This document shows, piece by piece, positions 3,018 through 64,000 of a stretch of DNA of 64,000 bases. A model generated the notes under the pieces. That model made no database searches. It was not told the DNA's origin and saw nothing but the letters and a program-made list of their open reading frames with translations. This DNA comes from Acidobacteria bacterium RIFCSPLOWO2_12_FULL_66_21 (GTDB lineage: Bacteria > Acidobacteriota > Vicinamibacteria > Vicinamibacterales > 2-12-FULL-66-21). The stretch spans positions 34,721 through 98,720 of the forward strand of contig MELC01000067.1 in the NCBI GenBank assembly GCA_001767455.1, read 5' to 3'. The position numbers and the translations under genes were made by a program. The first letter of the stretch is position 1; every line of letters starts with the position of its first letter.

Positions 3018-3057
3018 CAGGCGTATACAATGCCGCAAACGCCTTCCGGGAGCTTCC

Positions 3058-5460
3058 ATGAAATCTGTGCGTCACTTCTCGTTCCGTTCCGGCGTCATCG
3101 TGGTGGCGCTGCTCGGTGTTTCGTCGCTGGCCTTCGCCCAGGGCACGGTCGCCGACTACAAGCGCGCGATGGGGCTGCGCGACAAGTACCAGAACACAGT
3201 CCTCAACGTCACCGACCAGGCGCGGTGGCTCGCGAACACCAACCGACTCATCTATCGGAAGACCGTGAAGGGCGGGCACGAGTTCGTGCTCGTCGATGCG
3301 GACGCGCAGACGAAGAAGGCGCCGTTCGATCACGAGAAGCTCGCGGCCGCGCTGAAGACGGCGCTGCCCGGCCGTCCGATTACGGCGGTGACGCTGCCGT
3401 TCACGACGTTCAACCTCATCGACAACGACCGCGCGATTCAGTTCACGGTCGGCCCGGCTGTCGCGCCGGGCGGCGGCCGCGGTGGACGCGGCGGCCTCAT
3501 CCCGGACGCCGATGCCTGGCGCTGCTCGCTGGAGACCTACACGTGCCGGCCCCCGCAGGGCCCCGGCCGCGGCGGGCGCGGCGGTCGCGGCGCCGGCGGT
3601 GGACTGGCCGGCCCCGTGCGGCCGCCCTTCGACATCAACGGCGCGGAGCCGAAGAAGTCGCCCGACGGCACCCTCGAAGCCCTGGTCAACAACTACAACG
3701 TGGCGATCCGCAAGCCGGGCGAGCGTACGGTGACCCTGCTCGGCACCGACGGATCCGAGGGCGGATACTACGACCCCGATTCGCTCGCGTGGTCGCCCGA
3801 CTCGAAGAAGATCGCCATCTACCGGGTCAAACCAGGTTATCGCCGGTACGTGCACTACGTCGAATCGTCGCCGGAGGATCAGCTCCAGCCCAAGGACTCC
3901 GTGATGCAGTATGCGAAGCCGGGGGACGTGCTGGACAACGAGCAGCCGGTGTTGTTCACGGTCGAGACGAAGAAGCAGACGTTCATCGACAACGGGCTCT
4001 TCCCCAACGCGTACGACGTCACGCGCCTCGAATGGAGGAAGGACAGCTCGGCGGTTACCTTCGAGTACAACCAGCGCGGCCACCAGCTCTATCGCGTGAT
4101 CGAAATCGACGCGGCGACGGCGAAGGCGCGCACGGTCATCAGCGAGGAGCCGAAGACGTTCTTCTGCTACTCGGGCAAGAAGTATCGCTACGACGTCGAC
4201 GACGGGAAGGAAATCATCTGGATGTCGGAGCGGGACGGCTGGAACCACCTGTACCTGTACGACGGCACGACCGGGCAGGTGAAGAACCAGATCACGAAGG
4301 GCGCGTGGCCCGTGCGAAGCGTGGTGGCCACCGACGCGAAGAACCGGCAGATCTACTTCAGCGCGAGCGGCATGCACCCGGGCAAGGATCCCTATTTCGT
4401 CGAATACTTCCGCATCAACTTCGACGGGACCGGGCTCACCCCGTTGACCACGGCGGACGCGAACCACACCGCCACGTTCTCGCCGGGGTTCCCGAACAAC
4501 GTGCCGAAGTACTACATCGACGCCTACTCGCGCGTGGACACCCCGCCCGTCACCGAGCTGCGGCGCGTGGCGGATGGCGGTCTCGTCATGGAGCTCGAGC
4601 GCGCGGACGCCGCGGAATTGACCAAGGCGGGCTGGAAAGCGCCAGAAGTGTTCGTCGCGAAGGGGCGCGACAACGTCACCGACATCTGGGGGTTGATCTT
4701 CCGGCCGTCGAGCTTCACGCCCGCGAAGAAGTACCCGGTGATCGAGAACATCTACGCGGGACCGCAGGGGTCATTCGTCCCCAAGGGCTTCGGCGCGTAC
4801 AACCAGATGCAGGCCCAGGCGGAGCTCGGCTTCATCGTCGTCCAGATCGACGGCATGGGCACGAACAACCGCTCGAAGGCGTTCCACGACATCGCGTGGA
4901 AGGACCTGAAGGACGCGGGGTTCCCCGATCGGCTCCTCTGGCACAAGGCGGTCGCGGCGAAGTACCCGTACTACGACATCACGCGCGTGGGACTCTACGG
5001 AACATCAGCAGGCGGCCAGAACGCCCTCGGCGGACTGCTCTTCTTCCCCGAGTTCTACAAGGCGGCGTTCTCCGCGGCGGGCTGCCACGACAACCGCATG
5101 GACAAGATCTGGTGGAACGAGCAGTGGATGGGATGGCCGATCGGGGCCGAGTACGCGGAGTCCTCCAACGTCGACAACGCGTACCGCCTCCAGGGCAAGG
5201 TGCTGCTCGTCGTCGGCGAGATGGACCACAACGTGGACCCCTCGTCCACGATGCAGGTCGTCAATCGGCTGATCAAGCACAACAAGGATTTCGAGCTGCT
5301 GGTCGTGCCTGGCATGGACCACGGGTCGGGCGGCGCGTTCGGCGATCACAAGCGGTACGACTTCTTCGTGCGCAACCTGCTGGGCGTCACCCCGCCCGAA
5401 TGGAAGCTGCTCGAGGATGCCGCGAAGCCCACGACGACGACGGCAGGGGGGGTTGACTAG
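3058..5460 (+). CDS. secreted S9-family (DPP IV-like) prolyl oligopeptidase
   Basis: N-terminal signal peptide, beta-propeller, [15 protein letters not shown] nucleophile motif (GxSxGG), C-terminal GEMDHNVDP and MDHGSGG. Confidence 0.88.
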
Positions 5461-5506: not shown

Positions 5507-8500
5507 TACTCGAGCCCCCTTCTGACCCGATCGAGCGCCGCAACGGCTTCGTCCGTGAGGCGCGCGTAGGTCTCGATCCACTCCGCCTGCGCGGCAGTCG
5601 GCCGGCCGCTGTAGTTGCCGACCTGGATCGTGAGCCAGTTGATCCGTCCCGGCAGGTTCACGTGGCCGGGATCGCGCGGGTCGCCGCGCAGCGCGAGAAC
5701 GACCGGGCGCAGGTCGCCGCGCAGACGCGCCGCCTGCGCCCGTTTTGCCGGATCCGCCTCGAGCGACGCGACCTGGCGCTCGATCGCCGCAAGCTCCCCG
5801 TTCGCGCGCGCCAGCGTGCACTGCGTGCGCTCGATCTTCTGCGCGGCGCTGAGCCACGCGCGCATGTCGTCCGCGGTCGCTGTCACGCGTGGATCGAGCC
5901 GCACGTCCACCGGTTGTTCAGCACGCGCTCCGCCCGCCGTCACCGTCGCCGTGTACCGCCCGGGAATGGCGCGCACCCAGCTTCCGCCACCGCGCCCGCC
6001 GCGTCCGCCCCTTCCCTGCCCCGCCGGCGACGGACCGCACGAAGACGAGCGCGACAGGTTCCACACGGCGCGGTTCACACCGGCTGCGCCGGGACCGTCG
6101 AACGTCTGCACCACGCCGCCCGATGCATCTGTAATCGTGATGGTCACCGACGGCACTGACGCCGGCAGGTAGTACGACAGGATGGCACCGTACGGCTGGT
6201 TGCGCGCGACCCACACGCGATTGCCGAGGGAACTCACGTCGCTCGCCGGGATATACCGCACCGCCGGCGTCGGCTTGAACAGCGTCAACGCTGACGGGCG
6301 CACCCGCGCGATCTCCTGGAGCGGCGTCACGTCGTCGAGCACGTAGAACCCGCGCGCGTGCGTCGCGATGACGAGGTCGTTGTCACGCGGATGGACGACG
6401 AGATCCACGGTGGCGAGATGCGGCAGACCGAGGCGCAGATCGGCCCACCTGGTGCCGCGGTCGAACGACGCGAAGACGCCGAGCTCGGTGCCCGCGTAGA
6501 GCAGGTTCGGCTGCCTTGGATCCTCTCGCACGACGTGCGCATACCCCGTCAGACCGCCGGTGATCTTCTTCCACGTCTCCCCGAAGTCGGTCGTGACGAA
6601 GACGTACGGCGAGAAGTCATCGAGCCGGTGCTGGTCGATCGTGAGGTAGGCCGTGCCGGCCTCGGCGGCGGAGGCGGAGATCGACGACACCCATGAGAAC
6701 TTCGGCGCGCCGGCGATCCTCGGCCCGACGTTCCGCCACGTCCTCCCGCCGTCGCGCGTGATCTGCACGTTTCCGTCGTCGGTTCCTGCCCAGACAACGT
6801 GCGGATCGCGCGGGCTCTCGGCGATTGAAATGACGGTGCAGTGGTATTCGGCGCGCGTGTTGTCGGTCGAAATCGGACCGCCGCTCGACTTCTGCTTCTC
6901 CGGATCGTCGGTCGTCAGGTCCGGGCTGATCGCCTGCCAGGTCTCTCCATGGTCGGTGGTCTTGAAGAGCACGTTGCCGCCGTAATAGAGGACGTCCGGG
7001 TTCGTGGGCGACATGTGGACCGGGGAGTTCCAGTTGAAGCGGTACTTCTCCAGGTTCGCGCCGCCCCCGGCCGGGCCGGGCGGATACGGCTGGATGTAGC
7101 GCTCCTCGCGGTTCCGCATGTCGAGGCGCGTGATGTCGCCGAAGTGGCCGTTGTAGTAGATGAGATTCGGATCGCGCGGGTCCGCGATCGCGTGCATGCC
7201 GTCGGCCATGTAGCGCAGCCGCGTCCAGTCTCCCTCCCGCACGCCGGCCTGGTTCCACTTCTCGTTGGGGCCGCGCCAGATTTCGTGATCCTGGAAGCCG
7301 CCAAGGATGTTGTACGGCTCGGCCATGTCCACGCTTACGTGGTACGGCTGCGCCATCGGCATGTTGTTCACGAAGTCCCAGTTGCGCCCGTAATCGTTCG
7401 TGATGAAGAAGCCGCCGTCCGTGCCGCACAGCATCCGCTTCGGGTTGCCGGGATCGATCCAGAGCGCGTGGTGATCGCCGAACATCCGGCCGCCGCCCGA
7501 CGCGAACGTGCGTCCTCCGTCGGTCGAGACGTTGAACGAGCCGGAGAGCGTGTACACCCGCTCCGGATCGACGGGATCCGCGCGGACCTGCGTGTAGTAG
7601 AACGGCCGGTTGTTGATGCGCCGCTCGTTGTTCACCATCTTCCAGGTCGCGCCGCGATCGTTCGACCGCCAGAGGACGCCGTCCTCCTGCGCTTCGATGA
7701 GCGCGTAGACGATGTCCGGGTTGTTCCGGTGGATGCTGACGCCGATCCGCCCGAGCAGCTTCGCGCCCGGAAGGCCGTTCTTCAACCCCGGATCGGTCAG
7801 CTTCTTCCACGTCACGCCACCGTCGGCGGATCGATACAAGCCGCCGCCCGCGCCGCCGCTCCTGAACGCCCACGGCTGCCGCAGGTAGTCGTACATCCCC
7901 GCGTAGACGATGTTGGGATCCCTGGGGTCGATCGCGACGTCGCTCGCGCCGGTGGTCTCGTTGACGAAGAGCGTGCGCTGCCACGTCGTCCCGCCGTCAA
8001 TCGACCTGAAGATCCCGCGCTCGGTGTTCGGACCGAAGGCATGCCCCATGGCGGCCGCAAGGACGACCCGCGGGTTGGCCGGGTGGATCGCGATGCGCGA
8101 AAACCGCTCCGTGCGCTCGAGGCCGAGACGCTTCCAGGAGCGGCCGCCGTCGATCGACTTGTAGATGCCGTCGCCGAACGAGATGCTGTTGCGCACCGCC
8201 CCCTCACCGGTCCCGACATACACGACGTCGGGATTGTCCGGTTGGACCGCGATCGCGCCAATCGAGAGGGTGTTCCCGGTTTCGAACACCGGGTCAAAAG
8301 TGATCCCGCCATTCGTCGACTTGTACAAGCCGGCGGACGATGCCCCTGCGTAAAGGACGTCCGGATTGCCGGGAACGCCGGCCACGTCCGCGACGCGCCC
8401 GGCGAACATCGCCGGGCCGACCGCACGCCAGGACATCCCGCCAAGCTGGATGCGGGGCGGGGGTTCCTGAAGGACCGCGTGCACGGCGGCGCCAGCGAGC

Positions 8501-56735: not shown

Positions 56736-56838
56736 CAGCCGCCGGCGCGCTCGACGCGGCGGCGCCGCTATTGTAGCTGACGATGGGACGCGGCGGGGAA
56801 CCCTGCTTACTCACCTCAGACAGACGTCGTCACGGACA

Positions 56839-57388
56839 TCACGCTTCGGTGCCGTAGGAGAACTGCATGCGCCGGACGGCGAGACCGGCGATCCACAGGA
56901 CGAACGCGGTCAGGAGCAGCAACCCGAGAATCGCTCCTGGACGCGAGGCGGGAGCGGCGGGCGCCGCCAGCAACCGGATCAGCGTCGGCGTATCGCCGTC
57001 CATCGGTGCAGGGACGGGACACAGGGACTGCAGGTAATAGAGGATGCTCATCCTCTGCAGGACGTGCGGAAAGATGCCGTTGGCTCCCTCCCAGGCGAGC
57101 GACACGGCCGCCGGGACAATGGGATTGCGGAGGTACACGCCGACCGCAATCGCCTCCCGCACTGGCGTGCTTCACGATGAAGCGCGTCACCGGACGAACC
57201 GCTCCCAGATCCACCTGCACGAACAGGGGCCAGTCGTCAGCGCACCACCGGTCGGCCTGACCTCCCGCCACGCTGGCGTTCACGGAGTTGCGAGCCGCCG
57301 AGGCCGTGGGCCACCGGCCGAAGGCGGCCCGCAAGTCACAGCCGAAGCGCCACTTCTCAGGCCAGTCGACGAGAGTCGGTGCGACCAT
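56839..57388 (-). pseudogene. chimeric remnant: discoidin-like fragment joined out of frame to the C-terminus of an ABC-2-type permease
   Basis: NASVAGGQADRWCADDWPLFVQVDLGAVRPVTRFIVKHASAGG in one frame; VSLAWEGANGIFPHVLQRMSILYYLQSLCPV...GAILGLLLLTAFVLWIAGLAVRRMQFSYGTEA in another. Confidence 0.5.
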
Positions 57389-57500
57389 GTGCGCAACTCC
57401 GTCCGAGGCTGACGAACTTGGAAGACCGGCTGGTCAACCCGGCTCATCTGGCGTAGGCTCTTGGCCATTCCGCTCCGGTCCCTGTGACTGAGAGGGCGGA

Positions 57501-57595
57501 GAGGTAAAGGGACCGCTCCCGGGAGGAGATCTTCAGGCCACTGTCCTGAGAATGTGGGGAGAAACTCGACGGTCGTAGCGACGTCTTGATCTATC
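57501..57595 (+). repeat. left copy of a >=95-bp direct repeat flanking the mobile region
   Basis: GAGGTAAAGGGACCGCTCCCGGGAGG...TAGCGACGTCTTGATCTATC identical to 63906-64000. Confidence 0.92.
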
Positions 57596-57612
57596 CGCCG
57601 CAGGCGGATTTA

Positions 57613-57685
57613 GTCCAACAGAGATTTGCAGCCGACGACGGCTGGTGCGATCATGAGCCGTCGCGGCTGAAATCTGACGTTAGAC
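57613..57685 (+). other. integron attC recombination site
   Basis: GTCCAAC (RYYYAAC) ... GTTAGAC (GTTRRRY) bounding AGATTT(G)CAGCCG(A)CGACGGCT / AGCCGTCGCGGCTGAAATCT with unpaired bases in one arm only. Confidence 0.75.
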
Positions 57686-57706
57686 AGCTCGAAAGAAAAA
57701 TATTCC

Positions 57707-58162
57707 GTGGAATGGAACCTTCGCTCGGCCTCGAAATCGGATCGCGATTTCCTATATATGCTTCATCGCACGACCATGCGCGAGGTGATCAAGAAAACAT
57801 GGGGCTGGGACGAAGCATGGCAGCTAACTGATTTCGACAGGCGTCTAGCTGCGTACGTCGTGTCGATCATCGAAGCCGAACATCGTGCGGCCGGTAGCCT
57901 CTGGCTCGAATGGAAACCGGATTCACTGTACATCCACGAAGTACAGGTCCTGCCGGAATTCCAGGGCAAAGGGCTTGGGACAGAAGTGGTGCAACACGTC
58001 ATCAAGCAGGGGGCTCACCGCCGACTTCCGGTCACGCTCTCGGTGGTCCCAGCCAATCCCAGGGCCAAGCGTCTCTATGAGCGGCTTGGGTTCGAGGTGA
58101 CCGGTGTCGAACCACCATTTATTCGCATGCGCCACAGCGCCTCAGTCAAAGGAGCTGTCTAA
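57707..58162 (+). CDS. GNAT-family N-acetyltransferase (integron cassette gene)
   Basis: LYIHEVQVLPEFQGKGLGTEVVQHVI and NPRAKRLYERLGFEVTGVEPPFIRM; the stop codon lies inside the downstream attC RYYYAAC. Confidence 0.87.
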   Translation: MEWNLRSASKSDRDFLYMLHRTTMREVIKKTWGWDEAWQLTDFDRRLAAYVVSIIEAEHRAAGSLWLEWKPDSLYIHEVQVLPEFQGKGLGTEVVQHVIKQGAHRRLPVTLSVVPANPRAKRLYERLGFEVTGVEPPFIRMRHSASVKGAV

Positions 58163-58213
58163 CGAATAAAGGATTCGTGTCGCGCGAAGCCGCGACACAA
58201 TCCTGGGTTGGAC
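58157..58213 (+). other. integron attC recombination site
   Basis: GTCTAAC ... GTTGGAC bounding AGGATT(C)GTGTCGCG / CGCGACACAATCCT with one unpaired base. Confidence 0.78.
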
Positions 58214-58460
58214 GAAATCCGGGCACGAGCGTTGCGATTGGGGTTCTTATCGCGTGTGAGCGAGTGAGACGGGTGCGGTGAGCCGTCGGGGTGGACGATC
58301 ACACGAGGCCAGTCGGTGCGGTGGGCGTGAATGTGAGCGGCGAGCTGGAGGTTCCCCGGCGTCAGGAACGTGAGGGCACGGGCGATCGGCGACACGACGC
58401 CACGCACGGCCGATCGGCGTGTTGAAAGAGGTGGCAGCGCGCGGCGTCAGCATGGCGTGC

Positions 58461-59558
58461 TCAGGGCGGCCGGCTCCACGACGGTCGGAGCACGGCGATG
58501 ACGATCAGCGTCCCCACGCGGCAGTGCGGACACTGCAGGAGGTCGCCGAGGGATGATGGGCGTGCGGGCTCGGGGACCGGCGGCGCGGCGATCACGGGGA
58601 GGGCCGTGAGCAGCGCCCGCGCGCGGGTGCGATCGGCGCGCTGCGCGGTGCTCCAGAGCCCGTAGTAGCGGACCTTGGCGCAGCCGCGTGGCAGGACGTG
58701 CTGGAGAAAGCGCTCGAGAAATTCCACGCCAGACAGCGTGACGTGGCGCGTCTCATGCGTCCGATTGTCCTGATAGCGAAACGTCACGTCGTCATCGGTC
58801 ATCTCCTCCAATCGGCTGTTCGCGATCGCGATGCGGAACACATACCGACCCAGATAGTCGAGGACTCGCTGACCGCGGCCGGCGTGCTGGGCGTGGACCA
58901 CCCACGGCGTCGTCCAGATCCCGGCCGGTCCCTGGTCGAGTAGCCCCGCGCGGCGAAGCCCGGCGCACACTTTCGCACGGAAGATGACCGACAACGCCTG
59001 TACGGGGACGAGGAACGCGGGGTTCTTCGGGGCGATCCACTGCGTGCCGTCGGACGAGAGGCCGCCCGCCGTCACGAGGAGATGGACGTGGGGATGATAG
59101 AGCATCGCGCGCGTCCAGGTGTGGAGGACGGCGAGGCAGCCAAGGCGCGCGCCGACGTAGCGCGGGTCGGCGGCCAGGCGTTGGAGGGCCGCGGCCGCGC
59201 TGCGCATCAGCACGCCGTAGACGAGGCGCTGGTGCGCGAACGCGAGCGCGCGCAACGGCTGGGGCAGCGTGAACGTGACCAGATAGTACGGGCACGGGAG
59301 GAGCTGTCCGCGCTGCGTTTCGAGCCAGCGCTCGGTGTGAGGGCCGTGACACGTCGGACAGTGCCGGTTGCCGCACGAGTGATAGCGAAAGACCTGGCGC
59401 TCACAGTGATCGCACTGCGTGAGCTGGCCGCCGAAGTACGCAGTCCGGCACGCTCCGAGATCCCGGAGGACTCGCGCCTGACTCGGGAGCAGACGGTTCC
59501 CGACGTGGGCGCGGTATGCCGCGCTGTGGAGGCGGATGATCTCCGCCACCGCGAGCAT
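58461..59558 (-). CDS. IS91-family (Y2/HUH) transposase
   Basis: Zinc-ribbon CDHCERQVFRYHSCGNRHCPTCHG, HPHVHLLVTAGGLS HUH motif, LGRYVFRIAIANSRL, DDDVTFRYQDNRTHETRHVTLSGVEFLERFLQHVLPRGCAKVRYYGLWS. Confidence 0.92.
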   Translation of the reverse strand: MLAVAEIIRLHSAAYRAHVGNRLLPSQARVLRDLGACRTAYFGGQLTQCDHCERQVFRYHSCGNRHCPTCHGPHTERWLETQRGQLLPCPYYLVTFTLPQPLRALAFAHQRLVYGVLMRSAAAALQRLAADPRYVGARLGCLAVLHTWTRAMLYHPHVHLLVTAGGLSSDGTQWIAPKNPAFLVPVQALSVIFRAKVCAGLRRAGLLDQGPAGIWTTPWVVHAQHAGRGQRVLDYLGRYVFRIAIANSRLEEMTDDDVTFRYQDNRTHETRHVTLSGVEFLERFLQHVLPRGCAKVRYYGLWSTAQRADRTRARALLTALPVIAAPPVPEPARPSSLGDLLQCPHCRVGTLIVIAVLRPSWSRPP

Positions 59559-59574: not shown

Positions 59575-59745
59575 TCAGAGGCCGGACATCAGGTCGTTGA
59601 GCGGGTCGGTCAGCGTGGCCCGCACGGCCGAGGTCAGGTGCGTGTAGATCTGCGTGGTGCGCACGCTCCGGTGGCCGAGGATGTCCTGAATGACCCGCAG
59701 ACTCACCCCGGCTTCATGGAGGTGGGTGCCGTACGAATGCCGCCT
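59575..59745 (-). pseudogene. C-terminal fragment of the IS91-associated tyrosine integrase (other half at 63176-63882)
   Basis: Minus strand reads [55 protein letters not shown]-stop, including the catalytic Tyr. Confidence 0.88.
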
Positions 59746-59882
59746 ATGCCGCATCCGGCATAGGCGGCACTATGCCGCGTCCCGGACTATGCCGCGTCAT
59801 CCTGGAGAATTGGACGGGGACCACGTGATCGTGTGGCTCCGGAATAACGCTGGGAGCAAGTACGCGGCATAGTCCGACGCGC

Positions 59883-60884
59883 CTACAGCCCCTTGAGGAA
59901 CGCCAGCAGGCGATCATCGGGCCGGTAGCGACCCGGCGAGGGTGCGTTGGCCGGGGCAGTCTTGGCCAAGGCCTGTTCCTTGAGCACGAGGTTGGCATCG
60001 AGGTACATCTGTGTCGTTTCGATGGATTCGTGCCCCAGCCAGAGTGCGATGACGGATCGGTCGACTCCCGCTTGCAACAGTTCCATCGCCGCCGAATGTC
60101 GCAGTACATGCGGTGAAACCTGCTTCTGCGTGAGCGACGGACAGTGCCGTTGGGCCGCGGCGACATGTTTCCTCACCAGATACTGCACGCCATCCGCGCT
60201 GAGCTGGCTTCCTCGCACGTTTGGAAACACCATGTCGCCGCTGCCGCGCCCGGGCTCCTGCAACCACGTCTTGAGCGCCTGCGCGGCCTGCTTGGTGAGC
60301 GGCGTGCATCGCTCCTTGCGCCCTTTCCCGACGCAGCGTACATGCGCGCCGGTGCCGAGCGCGACATCCTCGCGGCGGAGACTGGTCATCTCCGACAGCC
60401 GCAAGCCCGTTTGCACCGCGACCAGGAGGAAGACGTGGTCGCGACGGCCCATCCACGTGTGTCGGTCAGGTGCCGCCAACACGGCGTTGATTTCCGGTCT
60501 CGTCGGGAAGCCCACCAGCTTCTTCTCGTACCGCTTGCTCGGCATCGCCAGCACGCGTTGGATGAGCCCAGACTGGGCGGGGTCTTCGAACGCCGCGTAG
60601 CGGAAGAACGACCGGATGGCGGTCAGACGCAGATTGCGGCTTCGGGCGCTATTTCCACGGCGTGTCTCCAGCCCGTCGAGGAATGCGCCGATCAACGCGG
60701 GATCCAGATCCGCGAGCGCCAGCGCGGACGGCGATTTGTGCAGCCGCTGGCCGGCAAACTGCAGCAGCAACCGAAACGTGTCCCGGTAGGACGCGATTGT
60801 ATGCGGACTGGCTTGGCGCTGCGCCGTCAGCCGTTGCGTAAAGAACCGCTCCAACAAGGTCGAGAAGCTAAGGTCAGTCTTCAT
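59883..60884 (-). CDS. tyrosine recombinase, third of the RIT trio
   Basis: TGLRLSEMTSLRREDV (Arg), SPHVLRHSAAMELLQAGVDRSVIALWLGHESIETTQMYLDAN. Confidence 0.92.
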   Translation of the reverse strand: MKTDLSFSTLLERFFTQRLTAQRQASPHTIASYRDTFRLLLQFAGQRLHKSPSALALADLDPALIGAFLDGLETRRGNSARSRNLRLTAIRSFFRYAAFEDPAQSGLIQRVLAMPSKRYEKKLVGFPTRPEINAVLAAPDRHTWMGRRDHVFLLVAVQTGLRLSEMTSLRREDVALGTGAHVRCVGKGRKERCTPLTKQAAQALKTWLQEPGRGSGDMVFPNVRGSQLSADGVQYLVRKHVAAAQRHCPSLTQKQVSPHVLRHSAAMELLQAGVDRSVIALWLGHESIETTQMYLDANLVLKEQALAKTAPANAPSPGRYRPDDRLLAFLKGL

Positions 60885-61812
60885 GTGTGAGCCCCCATCG
60901 TCGTTCCAGCCGGCTGGTGGCCAGTCGCATCAGCTCCGGATGCATCGACAAATACCAGTAGGTATCGGCGACATGCGCATGGCCGAGAAAGGTGGACAAC
61001 ACGGGCAATCGCCGTTCGATGTCTTCATGGGCGCGATACCACTGAATCAGTGTGTTGACGGCGAATCGATGCCGAAAATCATGAATCCGCGGACCCGTGT
61101 GGTCGGCGGGTCCGCGCAGGCCAATCCGACGCGACAGGTCGTAGAAGGTACGGTGCACCGCGGAGATCTCCAGACGGCGCCCATGATCGGTGAGGAGAAA
61201 GGCCGGTGATGGTGGGTGCGGCACCAATCGGTCCCGCCGTCCGGCATACGCGATGAAGACGTCCCGCGTGGACGCATGGAGCGGAATCAGCCGCGTCTTG
61301 TTGAATTTGGTCGTGCGGATCGTGAGCAGGCCTTCGTGAAGATCGACATCGCGGCGCTCCAAGGCGATCGCCTCGCTGATGCGGATCCCACTCACCACCA
61401 ACAACCCGAAGAGACAGTGGTACGTCCACGGGCGAAGGCCGTTAGTGGACGACAGCGTGTGCGTCGCCGCCAATAATTGCCGAATCTCCGCGTCGGTATA
61501 GAGGTACGGCCGGGCTCGTCGCGGTCGAAACGGGAGCAGACCGCCCGCCGGAATTTCGGTGCGCGGATCGGTCGCGCTCCAGTGGCGCGCGAATACGCGC
61601 ACGAATCCGAGGCGTTGCGCCCAATCGCTGGGTTGGTGATCCACCGGCTGCATCGCCCACGCCACCGCCAGCGCCGTGGTGATGAAGGGCGCGGCGTGCT
61701 GCTCCAAGAACGCCGCGAAATCTGTCAGGTCGGTGGCCATGTCGCGCAGCTTGAATCCCAAGCTACGACGGAGCGCGATGTACTCGTCCACGGCGTCTCG
61801 GAGCGGTTTCAT
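60874..61812 (-). CDS. tyrosine recombinase, second of the RIT trio
   Basis: VSGIRISEAIALERRDVDL, IHDFRHRFAVNTLIQWYRAHEDIERRLPVLSTFLGHAHVADTYWYLSMHPEL. Confidence 0.92.
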   Translation of the reverse strand: MKPLRDAVDEYIALRRSLGFKLRDMATDLTDFAAFLEQHAAPFITTALAVAWAMQPVDHQPSDWAQRLGFVRVFARHWSATDPRTEIPAGGLLPFRPRRARPYLYTDAEIRQLLAATHTLSSTNGLRPWTYHCLFGLLVVSGIRISEAIALERRDVDLHEGLLTIRTTKFNKTRLIPLHASTRDVFIAYAGRRDRLVPHPPSPAFLLTDHGRRLEISAVHRTFYDLSRRIGLRGPADHTGPRIHDFRHRFAVNTLIQWYRAHEDIERRLPVLSTFLGHAHVADTYWYLSMHPELMRLATSRLERRWGLTHED

Positions 61813-63062
61813 TGGTTACCTCCGGGCCACGAGAGAGCGATAGAACGAAGGGCGGCCAAGTCGACCTTCGCGTAGATGGCGGTGGTATCTGGATGCCGAT
61901 GCCGCAGCACGTCACCGATCTCGGGCAAGGAGGCTCCCTGCGTGAGCATCTGCGTGGCCAGACTGTGACGGAACAGGTGGGCGCCGCGGCAGGCCGACTC
62001 CACGCCTGCCGTCTCGAGAGCCCGGTCCACGAGGGAGCAGATCGCGATCGAGTTGGCGAATCCGTTCAACGGTGCCTTCGCCCGGATGAACACGCGGCGA
62101 CTGGCACACGCTGGGCGGGCGTGGCGAAGGTAGTCAGTCAACGCGGCACCGACGTCGACCGGTACGGGCATGTGTGCCACGCGCTTGCCTTTACCCCGGA
62201 CTGTGATCAGGCCCGCTTCCCAGTCGACGTCGTCCAGTGTCAACGCCACGACCTCGCCGGCGCGAAGCCCCAACCGTGCCAACAGCAGCAGGATGGTGTA
62301 GTTGCGTTTCCCGACGGCGGTGTCCCGATCGCAGGCGTCCAAGATCCGTTGGATCTGCGCGGCGGGAAGGAACTTCGGCACCGTCGAGAGCTTCCACGTG
62401 GCGATCGTCGGCACGCACGCCGCCAAGTTGGTGGCGATTGCGCCGCGATCGAGCAAGTGCCGGAGAAAGGAGCGGAGCGCCGTCACCACGGTCGAGGCGT
62501 GTTTCGTGGTAATGCGTTCCGCCTGGTGGCGGACGAACCCGGCGATGTCGCTGGCAGAGATCTGCTGGAGGTCTGGGGCACCAGTGGGAAAGCACTCCGC
62601 GAGAAACGCGGCCACGATGGGTGTGTAGTGGGTAATTGTCGCCTCGGCCAAGCTGCGTTCCTGCCGGAGGTAGTGCTGAAACTGCCGCAAGACGACCTGG
62701 GTGGCGGTGAGCGGCGCTGAAGGAGACTCCGTGTGGGAGCATCGAAGAATCCCCAACAGGCGAGACAGGGCCGCGGGATCGCCGCGGCGCAGCTTCCCGG
62801 CCTTTCGTCGGGAACGGACATATCGTTCCAGCGTCGACGAAGTGACCGCCGGGGCGGTGATGCGCTGGCGCTCCAACCACTGGCTGAAGTGCGCCAGCAT
62901 CCGGAGTTGCAACTGGCCCGACTGGGTCGCATACCCGTCGTCGTGCAAGCGTTGTGCGTAGGCCTGCAGGTGGGAAGCCAACGGGCCACGCGTGAGGACA
63001 TCGAGCGTCCTGGGATCAGTACGACGATTGAAAAAATGGTGAAGTGGGAGTGGGATGTCCAT
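61809..63062 (-). CDS. tyrosine recombinase, first of the RIT trio
   Basis: LGLRAGEVVALTLDDVDWEAGLITVRGKGKR, AHLFRHSLATQMLTQGASLPEIGDVLRHRHPDTTAIYAKVD; 4-bp overlap with the next gene. Confidence 0.92.
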   Translation of the reverse strand: MDIPLPLHHFFNRRTDPRTLDVLTRGPLASHLQAYAQRLHDDGYATQSGQLQLRMLAHFSQWLERQRITAPAVTSSTLERYVRSRRKAGKLRRGDPAALSRLLGILRCSHTESPSAPLTATQVVLRQFQHYLRQERSLAEATITHYTPIVAAFLAECFPTGAPDLQQISASDIAGFVRHQAERITTKHASTVVTALRSFLRHLLDRGAIATNLAACVPTIATWKLSTVPKFLPAAQIQRILDACDRDTAVGKRNYTILLLLARLGLRAGEVVALTLDDVDWEAGLITVRGKGKRVAHMPVPVDVGAALTDYLRHARPACASRRVFIRAKAPLNGFANSIAICSLVDRALETAGVESACRGAHLFRHSLATQMLTQGASLPEIGDVLRHRHPDTTAIYAKVDLAALRSIALSWPGGNQ

Positions 63063-63138
63063 ATCCCAGCATCGTGCCGGGACATCGTCCTTGACTATGC
63101 CGAGTCTTCACGATGAGACCCCTTGGCAACAGCACTTG

Positions 63139-63882
63139 TCAGGAATGACGCGGCATAGTCCGGGACTCGGCATAGTGGCGCAGCGTGTGCACGCTGGCGC
63201 GTTTGGCCATCCCGCTCCTCCGCCACGCGCGACGAAAGGCACTCTGGAGACTGCTGCGCGTGACGGGTCCGCGATGATGCGCCAGACTGTGCGGAAGACC
63301 GCGGCGTGTCGGGGCTGGGAAGAGCCACTCGCGCGACTGATGGGTGCGCCAATAGTCGCGCAGTCGCGGGAGGAGCGGCGCGGGCAGCGGCACATAGCGG
63401 TCGCGGCCGCCCTTGCCGTGAATGTGGAGCAGCATCCGGCCACTGTCGATATCGGCAATCTGGATGCGGGCGCCTTCGAGCAGACGCAGGCCACCGGCGT
63501 AGATCGTCGTCAAGCACTCGCGGTAGACGCGAATGCGCACCAGTCCGAGGATCTGCCGCACCTCGTCGCGGCTGAGCACGGTGGGCAACCGCGTCGACGG
63601 CGCGGGCCGCACGAAGCGGAGCGTCGGCCACGGCTGGTGCAGCGTCTGCTCGTACAGGAACCGGATCGCGCACAACGCGATGGTGGCAGTCGTGCGAGCG
63701 ACCTGCTTCTCGTTCGCCAAGTACAGGAAGTACTGGCGCAATTGCTCCTCGGTGAGCTGCGCCGGGCTGGTGTGGAAATGGTCGGCGAGTTGGCGGACGG
63801 CGGCGACATAGCACCCCTGGGTCCTTGCGGACAACCCCCGGAGTTGCATATCCTCCAGCATCCGTTGACGTAACGGCGTCAT
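63139..63882 (-). pseudogene. N-terminal fragment of the IS91-associated tyrosine integrase, interrupted at HTLRH (genuine coding to ~63176)
   Basis: MTPLRQRMLEDMQLRGLSARTQGCYVAAVRQL...GKGGRDRYVPLP...KRASVHTLRH then RIT-derived YAESRTMPRHS. Confidence 0.88.
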
Positions 63883-63905
63883 GCGGCCTCTCCTTCTGGG
63901 AGCGG

Positions 63906-64000
63906 GAGGTAAAGGGACCGCTCCCGGGAGGAGATCTTCAGGCCACTGTCCTGAGAATGTGGGGAGAAACTCGACGGTCGTAGCGACGTCTTGATCTATC
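63906..64000 (+). repeat. right copy of the >=95-bp direct repeat (runs off the window)
   Basis: Identical to 57501-57595. Confidence 0.92.

What the first reader, a model, noticed from the sequence alone, without database searches (positions are those of the whole stretch)
57613..58213. Integron gene cassette (attC-GNAT-attC) with no recognisable IntI in the window
Two attC-like sites (RYYYAAC...GTTRRRY with imperfect inverted repeats carrying unpaired bases on one arm only) flank a ~530-bp unit holding a GNAT acetyltransferase whose TAA stop overlaps the R'' box GTCTAAC, as in classic cassettes. The four tyrosine recombinases nearby look like RIT and IS91-associated types rather than IntI. 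This fits a CALIN (cassette cluster lacking an integrase) or the edge of a cassette array.
Basis: partly seen in the sequence, partly recalled or inferred. Interest (0 to 1): 0.75.

Follow-up and report, generated by a model that had tools for sequence, protein, structure and literature searches.

The report
Rolling-circle insertion element inside integron attC
One of the two reported cassette recombination sites is real, but the other is the end of an IS91-type jumping element that has inserted exactly inside the cassette's recombination site; relatives in several Acidobacteriota and Gemmatimonadota do the same, suggesting a kind of mobile DNA that specifically hunts integron cassettes.

Summary
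Site A (57613-57685) is a genuine attC. A covariance model built without it scores it 63.1 bits (E 1.3e-13 in the window), the best attC in the genome. The GNAT gene (57707-58162) is a real cassette (57680-58163) with exactly complementary R' and R'' boxes.

Site B (58157-58213) is not a cassette attC. Only its R'' box (58157-58163) belongs to the cassette. From 58164 it is the ori-end hairpin of an IS91-family element: a Y2 transposase plus an IntI-like tyrosine recombinase, here split by a RIT element. The same hairpin end flanks relatives in other Acidobacteriota and in Gemmatimonadota. In 6 of 6 copies with a detectable upstream attC, the 7 nt abutting the ori end are the exact reverse complement of the upstream cassette's R' box. 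The other (ter) end abuts the rest of an attC, at canonical spacing, in 12 of 16 places. So this ~2.4-kb IS91 subgroup inserts into attC between L'' spacer and R''.

The genome has at least 31 attC sites and only broken intI fragments. attC-targeting was known for IS1111-attC elements and group IIC-attC introns; I found no report for IS91. Which enzyme inserts it is unresolved.

The parts
57496..57619 (-). Remnant of a first copy of the IS91-type element: only its ter end, ending ..CCGCCGCAGGCGGATTTAGTCCAAC; the GTCCAAC now serves as R'' box of site A
   Evidence: 99% identical to 63902-64000, the stretch just beyond the integrase start of the second copy; same ter end in C77, C82, G285, L183 and others
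57613..57685 (+). Site A: genuine attC (R'' GTCCAAC, unpaired G and A on the 5' arm, R' GTTAGAC)
   Evidence: Covariance model R1: 63.1 bits, E 1.3e-13; best of the whole genome; geometry as in attCs beside intact IntI
57680..58163 (+). GNAT gene cassette from G|TTAGAC to its own R'' box GTCTAAC; the rest of its attC is displaced to beyond the element
   Evidence: R' and R'' exactly complementary, 7 of 7
57707..58162 (+). GNAT-family N-acetyltransferase, 151 aa, TAA stop inside the R'' box
   Evidence: PF00583, 59.5 bits; homologues of 57-69% identity in G311, G306, G116, G302
58157..58163 (+). R'' box GTCTAAC of the GNAT cassette = insertion point of the element (minus strand: ..CCTTTATTC|GTTAGAC)
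   Evidence: 6 of 6 copies with an upstream attC have the exact complement of the upstream R' here
58164..58213 (-). ori end of the second IS91-type copy: hairpin with one bulged G (58164-58206) and invariant internal box GTCCAAC (58207-58213, minus strand); misread as attC site B
   Evidence: 11 homologous ends aligned, internal box identical in 11 of 11; attached to Y2 transposase genes 62-66% identical to the window's in G384 and G285
58461..59558 (-). IS91-family Y2 (HUH) transposase, 365 aa, HUH motif HPHVH
   Evidence: NF033538 373 bits, cut-off 125; PF04986, PF14319
59593..59745 (-). C-terminal part of the element's IntI-like tyrosine recombinase
   Evidence: TIGR02249 positions 264-314 at C67:94313-94465; 76% to the intact G285 integrase
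59739..63176 (-). RIT element (three tyrosine recombinases 59883-60884, 60874-61812, 61809-63062) inserted in the recombinase gene at the LRH|S motif
   Evidence: ORFs, families, junctions read
63139..63882 (-). N-terminal part of the element's IntI-like tyrosine recombinase
   Evidence: TIGR02249 139.5 bits, below cut-off 265; intact homologue in G285 is 290 aa
63883..64000 (-). ter-end region of the second copy, cut by the end of the contig about 24 nt before its predicted terminus
   Evidence: Repeat of 57496-57595; window ends at the last base of contig C67 (98720)

Best explanation
The locus is a GNAT integron cassette whose own attC has been split by an IS91-family element. The element is about 2.4 kb: ori hairpin, Y2 transposase, IntI-like recombinase, ter end. 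It inserts into attC, on the bottom strand, between the hairpin arm with its spacer and the R'' box (..spacer|GTTRRRY). After insertion the cassette keeps R'' beside the ori end, and the element's terminal GTCCAAC (GTTGGAC on the minus strand) replaces R'' for the other attC half at unchanged spacing. Shown: both junctions, in several copies from two phyla. Inferred: the folded single-stranded attC bottom strand (hairpin followed by GTT) resembles the element's own ori (hairpin followed by GTT), so the transposition machinery takes attC as target. The Y2 transposase probably makes and inserts the single-stranded copy; the IntI-like recombinase, whose two GTCCAAC/GTTGGAC boxes would flank the hairpin in a circular form, may instead carry out the joining.
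For: (1) Ori-end homologues in 9 loci of the order plus Gemmatimonadota; in G384 and G285 the transposase is only 62-66% identical and the intervening DNA is unalignable, but the hairpin end is kept. (2) 6 of 6 copies with an upstream attC: flanking 7-mer equals revcomp of the upstream R', including off-consensus GCATAAC and GGCTAAC; in G349 and G028 the exact R' lies 500 and 638 nt upstream. (3) 12 of 16 ter ends continue into an attC with the model's R'' at the element's last 7 nt. (4) Whole elements with both ends: L183 (2416 bp, inside an array with five further attCs), G285 (2423 bp). (5) Hairpin folds with a 7-bp R-like stem once ends are joined; one compensatory G-C/T-A change. (6) Distant IS91+recombinase relatives in G097 and G212 do not sit in attCs, so the association is particular to this subgroup.
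Against: No empty and filled alleles of one locus were found; insertion is inferred from junctions. G196:C77 (58% identical transposase, both ends present) sits at ..CCCA|GTTGTAG with no recognisable attC. G116 is a decayed remnant. 4 of 16 ter ends are not followed by a full attC. The window copy is truncated by the contig end, so its far junction is unseen. Most genomes are draft assemblies or MAGs.
Confidence: 0.9

Rival explanations
1. One reading: an ordinary cassette between two attC sites (CALIN or array edge); the IS91 element merely landed downstream of site B.
For: Site B has R''-like and R'-like boxes, a hairpin and one unpaired base; the GNAT stop overlaps R''.
Against: Site B is missed by the attC model. 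The same 50-nt sequence occurs at the ends of diverged copies of the element in different cassettes, where real attCs would differ. Its flanking R'' varies with the upstream cassette while the hairpin does not.
Confidence: 0.05
2. Insertion is catalysed by the element's IntI-like tyrosine recombinase: in the circle, GTCCAAC-hairpin-GTTGGAC forms an attC-like site that recombines with the R'' box of a folded attC, as in cassette integration.
For: Best family match of the recombinase is the integron integrase family (198.7 bits). The internal GTCCAAC is invariant in 11 of 11 ends and complementary to the ter-end GTTGGAC. Both junctions carry whole R-like boxes, as G|TT exchange would give.
Against: The recombinase lacks the segment of the family profile after position 180 that distinguishes IntI. 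IntI normally exchanges at R', not R''. Distant relatives keep a similar internal box without sitting in attC, so the box need not be an attC mimic.
Confidence: 0.35
3. The element has only a short GTT-type target, and attC enrichment comes from attC arrays being dispensable and rich in exposed single strands, with no recognition of the attC fold.
For: IS91 is known to use short targets (5'-GAAC or 5'-GTTC, quoted in PMC7758954). G196 has a GTTG target outside a recognisable attC.
Against: Cassettes contain many GTT sites, yet all informative insertions are at R'' in the same strand orientation with exact spacing. Distant relatives do not show the enrichment.
Confidence: 0.12

Closest known systems
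IS91 family (Y2/HUH rolling-circle insertion sequences, with ISCR relatives)
   Same: Y2 transposase above the family cut-off, two unlike ends with secondary structure, insertion flush with a short sequence beginning GTT
   Different: Second gene for an IntI-like recombinase; target is the attC R'' box (GTTR) rather than the GAAC/GTTC quoted for IS91
IS1111-attC group (ISKpn4, ISPst6 and relatives)
   Same: Insertion sequences that target one end of attC sites (PMC11187229)
   Different: Those encode DEDD transposases guided by a seekRNA; this one encodes a Y2/HUH transposase
Group IIC-attC introns
   Same: Insert into the attC bottom strand at R'' within TTGT/T, using the attC hairpin (PMC7923331); the site here is about two nucleotides away
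   Different: Intron ribozyme and reverse transcriptase; the element here is a DNA element with no Rfam match
Integron gene cassettes and CALIN
   Same: Genuine attC and cassette at 57613-58163; many attCs without intact IntI in the genome
   Different: Site B is not an attC; only one whole attC is present in the assembled stretch
ISHahl1 (IS200/IS605, HUH) beside a CALIN in Halorhodospira
   Different: Different HUH family, single case, not reported as inserted in the attC

Membership tests
attC site (site A) | RYYYAAC ... GTTRRRY boxes | tested here: met
   GTCCAAC / GTTAGAC
attC site (site A) | Bottom-strand hairpin with unpaired bases on one arm at canonical spacing | tested here: met
   Fold; spacing as aadA1 and same-order attCs
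attC site (site A) | Covariance-model hit | tested here: met
   63.1 bits, E 1.3e-13
attC site (site B) | Covariance-model hit | tested here: not met
   Not found at E up to 10 with default filters; 13.6 and 12.2 bits with filters off
attC site (site B) | Box and hairpin belong to the cassette | tested here: not met
   Hairpin belongs to the IS91-type ori end; only R'' belongs to the cassette
Integron gene cassette (GNAT) | Own R' and R'' complementary, ORF stop near R'' | tested here: met
   GTTAGAC / GTCTAAC, 0 mismatches; stop inside R''
CALIN | At least two attC sites close together without intI | tested here: inconclusive
   One whole attC in the window; the cassette's second attC is split and continues beyond the contig end. 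Other contigs (C82, C7, C84, C77, C80) carry two or more attCs
CALIN | No intact integron integrase | tested here: met
   No match over the TIGR02249 cut-off in the whole genome; fragments only
IS91 family | Y2 transposase | tested here: met
   NF033538 373 bits, cut-off 125; PF04986
IS91 family | Structured ori and ter ends | tested here: met
   Hairpin at ori end; short palindrome TCCGCCGCAGGCGGA at ter end
IS91 family | GAAC/GTTC target tetranucleotide | tested here: not met
   Flank is GTTA or GTTG in most copies, within GTTRRRY
IS91 family | Rolling-circle transposition | not testable with these tools
   Needs an experiment
IS1111-attC | DEDD transposase | tested here: not met
   Only Y2 transposase and tyrosine recombinases found
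Group IIC-attC intron | Group II ribozyme | tested here: not met
   No Rfam match at gathering threshold
IntI (element's recombinase) | Integron integrase family score over cut-off, continuous profile | tested here: not met
   198.7 bits for the intact G285 homologue, cut-off 265, match split after position 180

The most novel reading that the evidence does not exclude
A distinct attC-specific branch of IS91 elements whose ori mimics a folded attC, and which by reading past its ter end carries cassettes along, so that cassettes spread without IntI and seed the dispersed attCs seen in this genome.
Probability: 0.2. Interest if true: 0.88.

Novelty: new variant of a known kind. Interest (0 to 1): 0.68.

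Why it matters
Two kinds of mobile element were known to aim at attC. A rolling-circle HUH element would be a third, independent solution that exploits the same folded single strand, and it would give a natural test of whether attC hairpins are exposed as single strands in the cell. IS91 and ISCR relatives are known for carrying neighbouring genes, so an attC-aimed branch offers a route for cassettes to move without an integron integrase and may help explain clusters of attC sites in genomes with only dead intI. It also shows that an IS end can be taken for an attC by eye.

Tried and rejected
The idea that R''(A) and R'(B) were one ancestral attC split by insertion of the GNAT cassette: rejected, since both boxes are element ends. 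The idea that the IS91 end lies at the GTTC at 58243-58246: rejected, since diverged elements keep the hairpin further out, up to 58164. An empty allele of the window locus: not found; upstream flank hits are a paralogous gene on C6 and homologues without the cassette region. Rfam gave nothing. A search centred on the Gemmatimonadota genome was not possible. Plasmids hold only relatives below 60% identity of the transposase. A first attempt to translate the C52 intI fragment failed on a stop codon.

Full report
What is there. The window is the last 64 kb of contig C67 of a 6.5-Mb, 91-contig genome. Neighbours found by search are Acidobacteriota MAGs.

Site A. To test attC identity I collected attCs next to intact IntI genes in the same phylum (89 of 297 genomes have one) and three known plasmid attCs (aadA16, aadA5, aadA1), aligned the bottom strands and fixed the R and L stems (97.6% of cells paired against 82.4% in shuffles). 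The model, built without any site of this genome, finds site A with 63.1 bits, E 1.3e-13. In the whole genome it finds at least 31 sites at E below 0.005 on about 20 contigs, with site A the best. This is a lower bound, because 150 of 23479 candidates were scored.

Site B. The same model does not report site B with default filters; forced scores are 13.6 and 12.2 bits. A DNA search of the order with 58140-58470 gave matches starting at site B and running into an IS91 transposase region. In G384 and G285 the neighbouring transposases are 62-66% identical, and the DNA between them and the hairpin no longer aligns, but the hairpin end is conserved. Eleven such ends align with an invariant internal GTCCAAC and a conserved stem with one bulged G. 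Site B is therefore the ori end of an IS91-type element.

The other end. Window 57496-57595 is repeated (99%) at 63902-64000, just outside the integrase start of the element. Its terminal part, CTATCCGCCGCAGGCGGATTTAGTCCAAC, is found in own contigs C77 and C82, in other Acidobacteriota and in Gemmatimonadota. Of 16 distinct ter ends, 12 are followed by an attC whose model match starts exactly on the element's last 7 nt (boundaries); one more has only the core, and three have none. In the window, 57496-57619 is a remnant of one copy whose GTCCAAC is the R'' box of site A.

Whole elements. L183 (Gemmatimonadota, 2416 bp), G285 (2423 bp) and L185 (2433 bp) have both ends, a Y2 transposase and an intact IntI-like recombinase of about 290 aa. 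L183 lies in an array with attCs at 42-125, 3360-3434, 4112-4207, 4839-4909, 5590-5661 and 7731-7809. The recombinase matches the integron integrase family best but below cut-off, with the profile interrupted after position 180.

Target. In six copies with an attC upstream (window, L183, G285, G384, G311:C6, G311:C281) the seven nucleotides abutting the ori end are the exact reverse complement of the R' box that begins the upstream cassette: GTCTAAC, GCCTAAC, GTCTAAC, GCATAAC, GTCTAAC, GGCTAAC. Given that AAC is shared, the chance of a match is about 1/256 per copy. In G349 and G028 the matching R' is found 500 and 638 nt upstream without a model-scored attC. The element thus lies between the L'' spacer and R'' of an attC. 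Joining the flanks in L183 and G285 gives an attC with one R'' box and unchanged spacing.

Limits and controls. One complete copy of a more distant member (G196, 58%) sits at GTTGTAG outside a recognisable attC. More distant IS91 elements with a recombinase gene (about 40% identity) in G097 and G212 share the layout of the ends but have flanks that are not attC. A 44% relative in G285:C171 has an ori hairpin that abuts GTTGGGC in a cassette array, in the opposite orientation. So attC targeting is a property of a subgroup, perhaps with parallels.

Mechanism. Shown: the junctions and their repetition across copies. Inferred: insertion into a folded attC bottom strand. On the element's sense strand the ori is hairpin followed by GTTRRRY; on the attC bottom strand the target is also hairpin followed by GTTRRRY. 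Y2 transposases act on single strands, so a Y2 reaction that treats attC as its own ori is the simplest route. The recombinase route (circle junction GTCCAAC-hairpin-GTTGGAC recombining with R'') is not excluded.

Known relatives. attC-targeting is known for IS1111-attC elements (PMC11187229) and group IIC-attC introns, which enter at R'' within TTGT/T (PMC7923331). IS91 is described with GAAC or GTTC targets (PMC7758954). Searches of the open library for IS91 with attC gave no report of IS91 elements inserted in attC; subscription papers and ISfinder could not be checked.

IntI. The genome has no integron integrase over the family cut-off, but pieces on C52, C41, C60, C12 and C5; C52 is frame-shifted and cut, C41 is interrupted by a RIT element, C5 has an internal deletion.

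Verdict. Observation partly confirmed; interpretation partly supported; the real finding is an IS91 subgroup that inserts in attC.

Noticed in passing
window 59739-63176; L006 (C41) about 240-1730; L005 (C52) 9810 to end: RIT elements, or their ends, interrupt tyrosine-recombinase genes at the codons of the conserved LRH|S motif in three genes: the IS91-type recombinase in the window and intI remnants on C41 and C52. This looks like site preference of RIT for that motif.
   Followed up: partly
L009 (C5) 3054-3123 and 3322-3792, minus strand: attC (55.3 bits) at the end of a PIN-domain toxin-like cassette, downstream of an intI remnant with an internal deletion.
   Followed up: partly
L218/L224 (G285:C171): A 44% identical IS91+recombinase relative has an attC-like ori hairpin abutting GTTGGGC inside a cassette array, in the opposite orientation to the subgroup described.
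   Followed up: partly
window 56838-57285: Degraded gene fragment upstream with a deletion of several hundred bases between 57147 and 57150 compared with its paralogue on own contig C6 (L127), which itself lies beside three attCs.
   Followed up: no
L184 1-150: ter end followed directly by AAGGCGTTAGCC: R'' and R' boxes remain but the attC hairpin between them is missing, as if deleted.
   Followed up: no
L185 reverse strand 1-92: Element abutting the ori hairpin of another copy (GTTGTCGCGG), a tandem or self-insertion.
   Followed up: no
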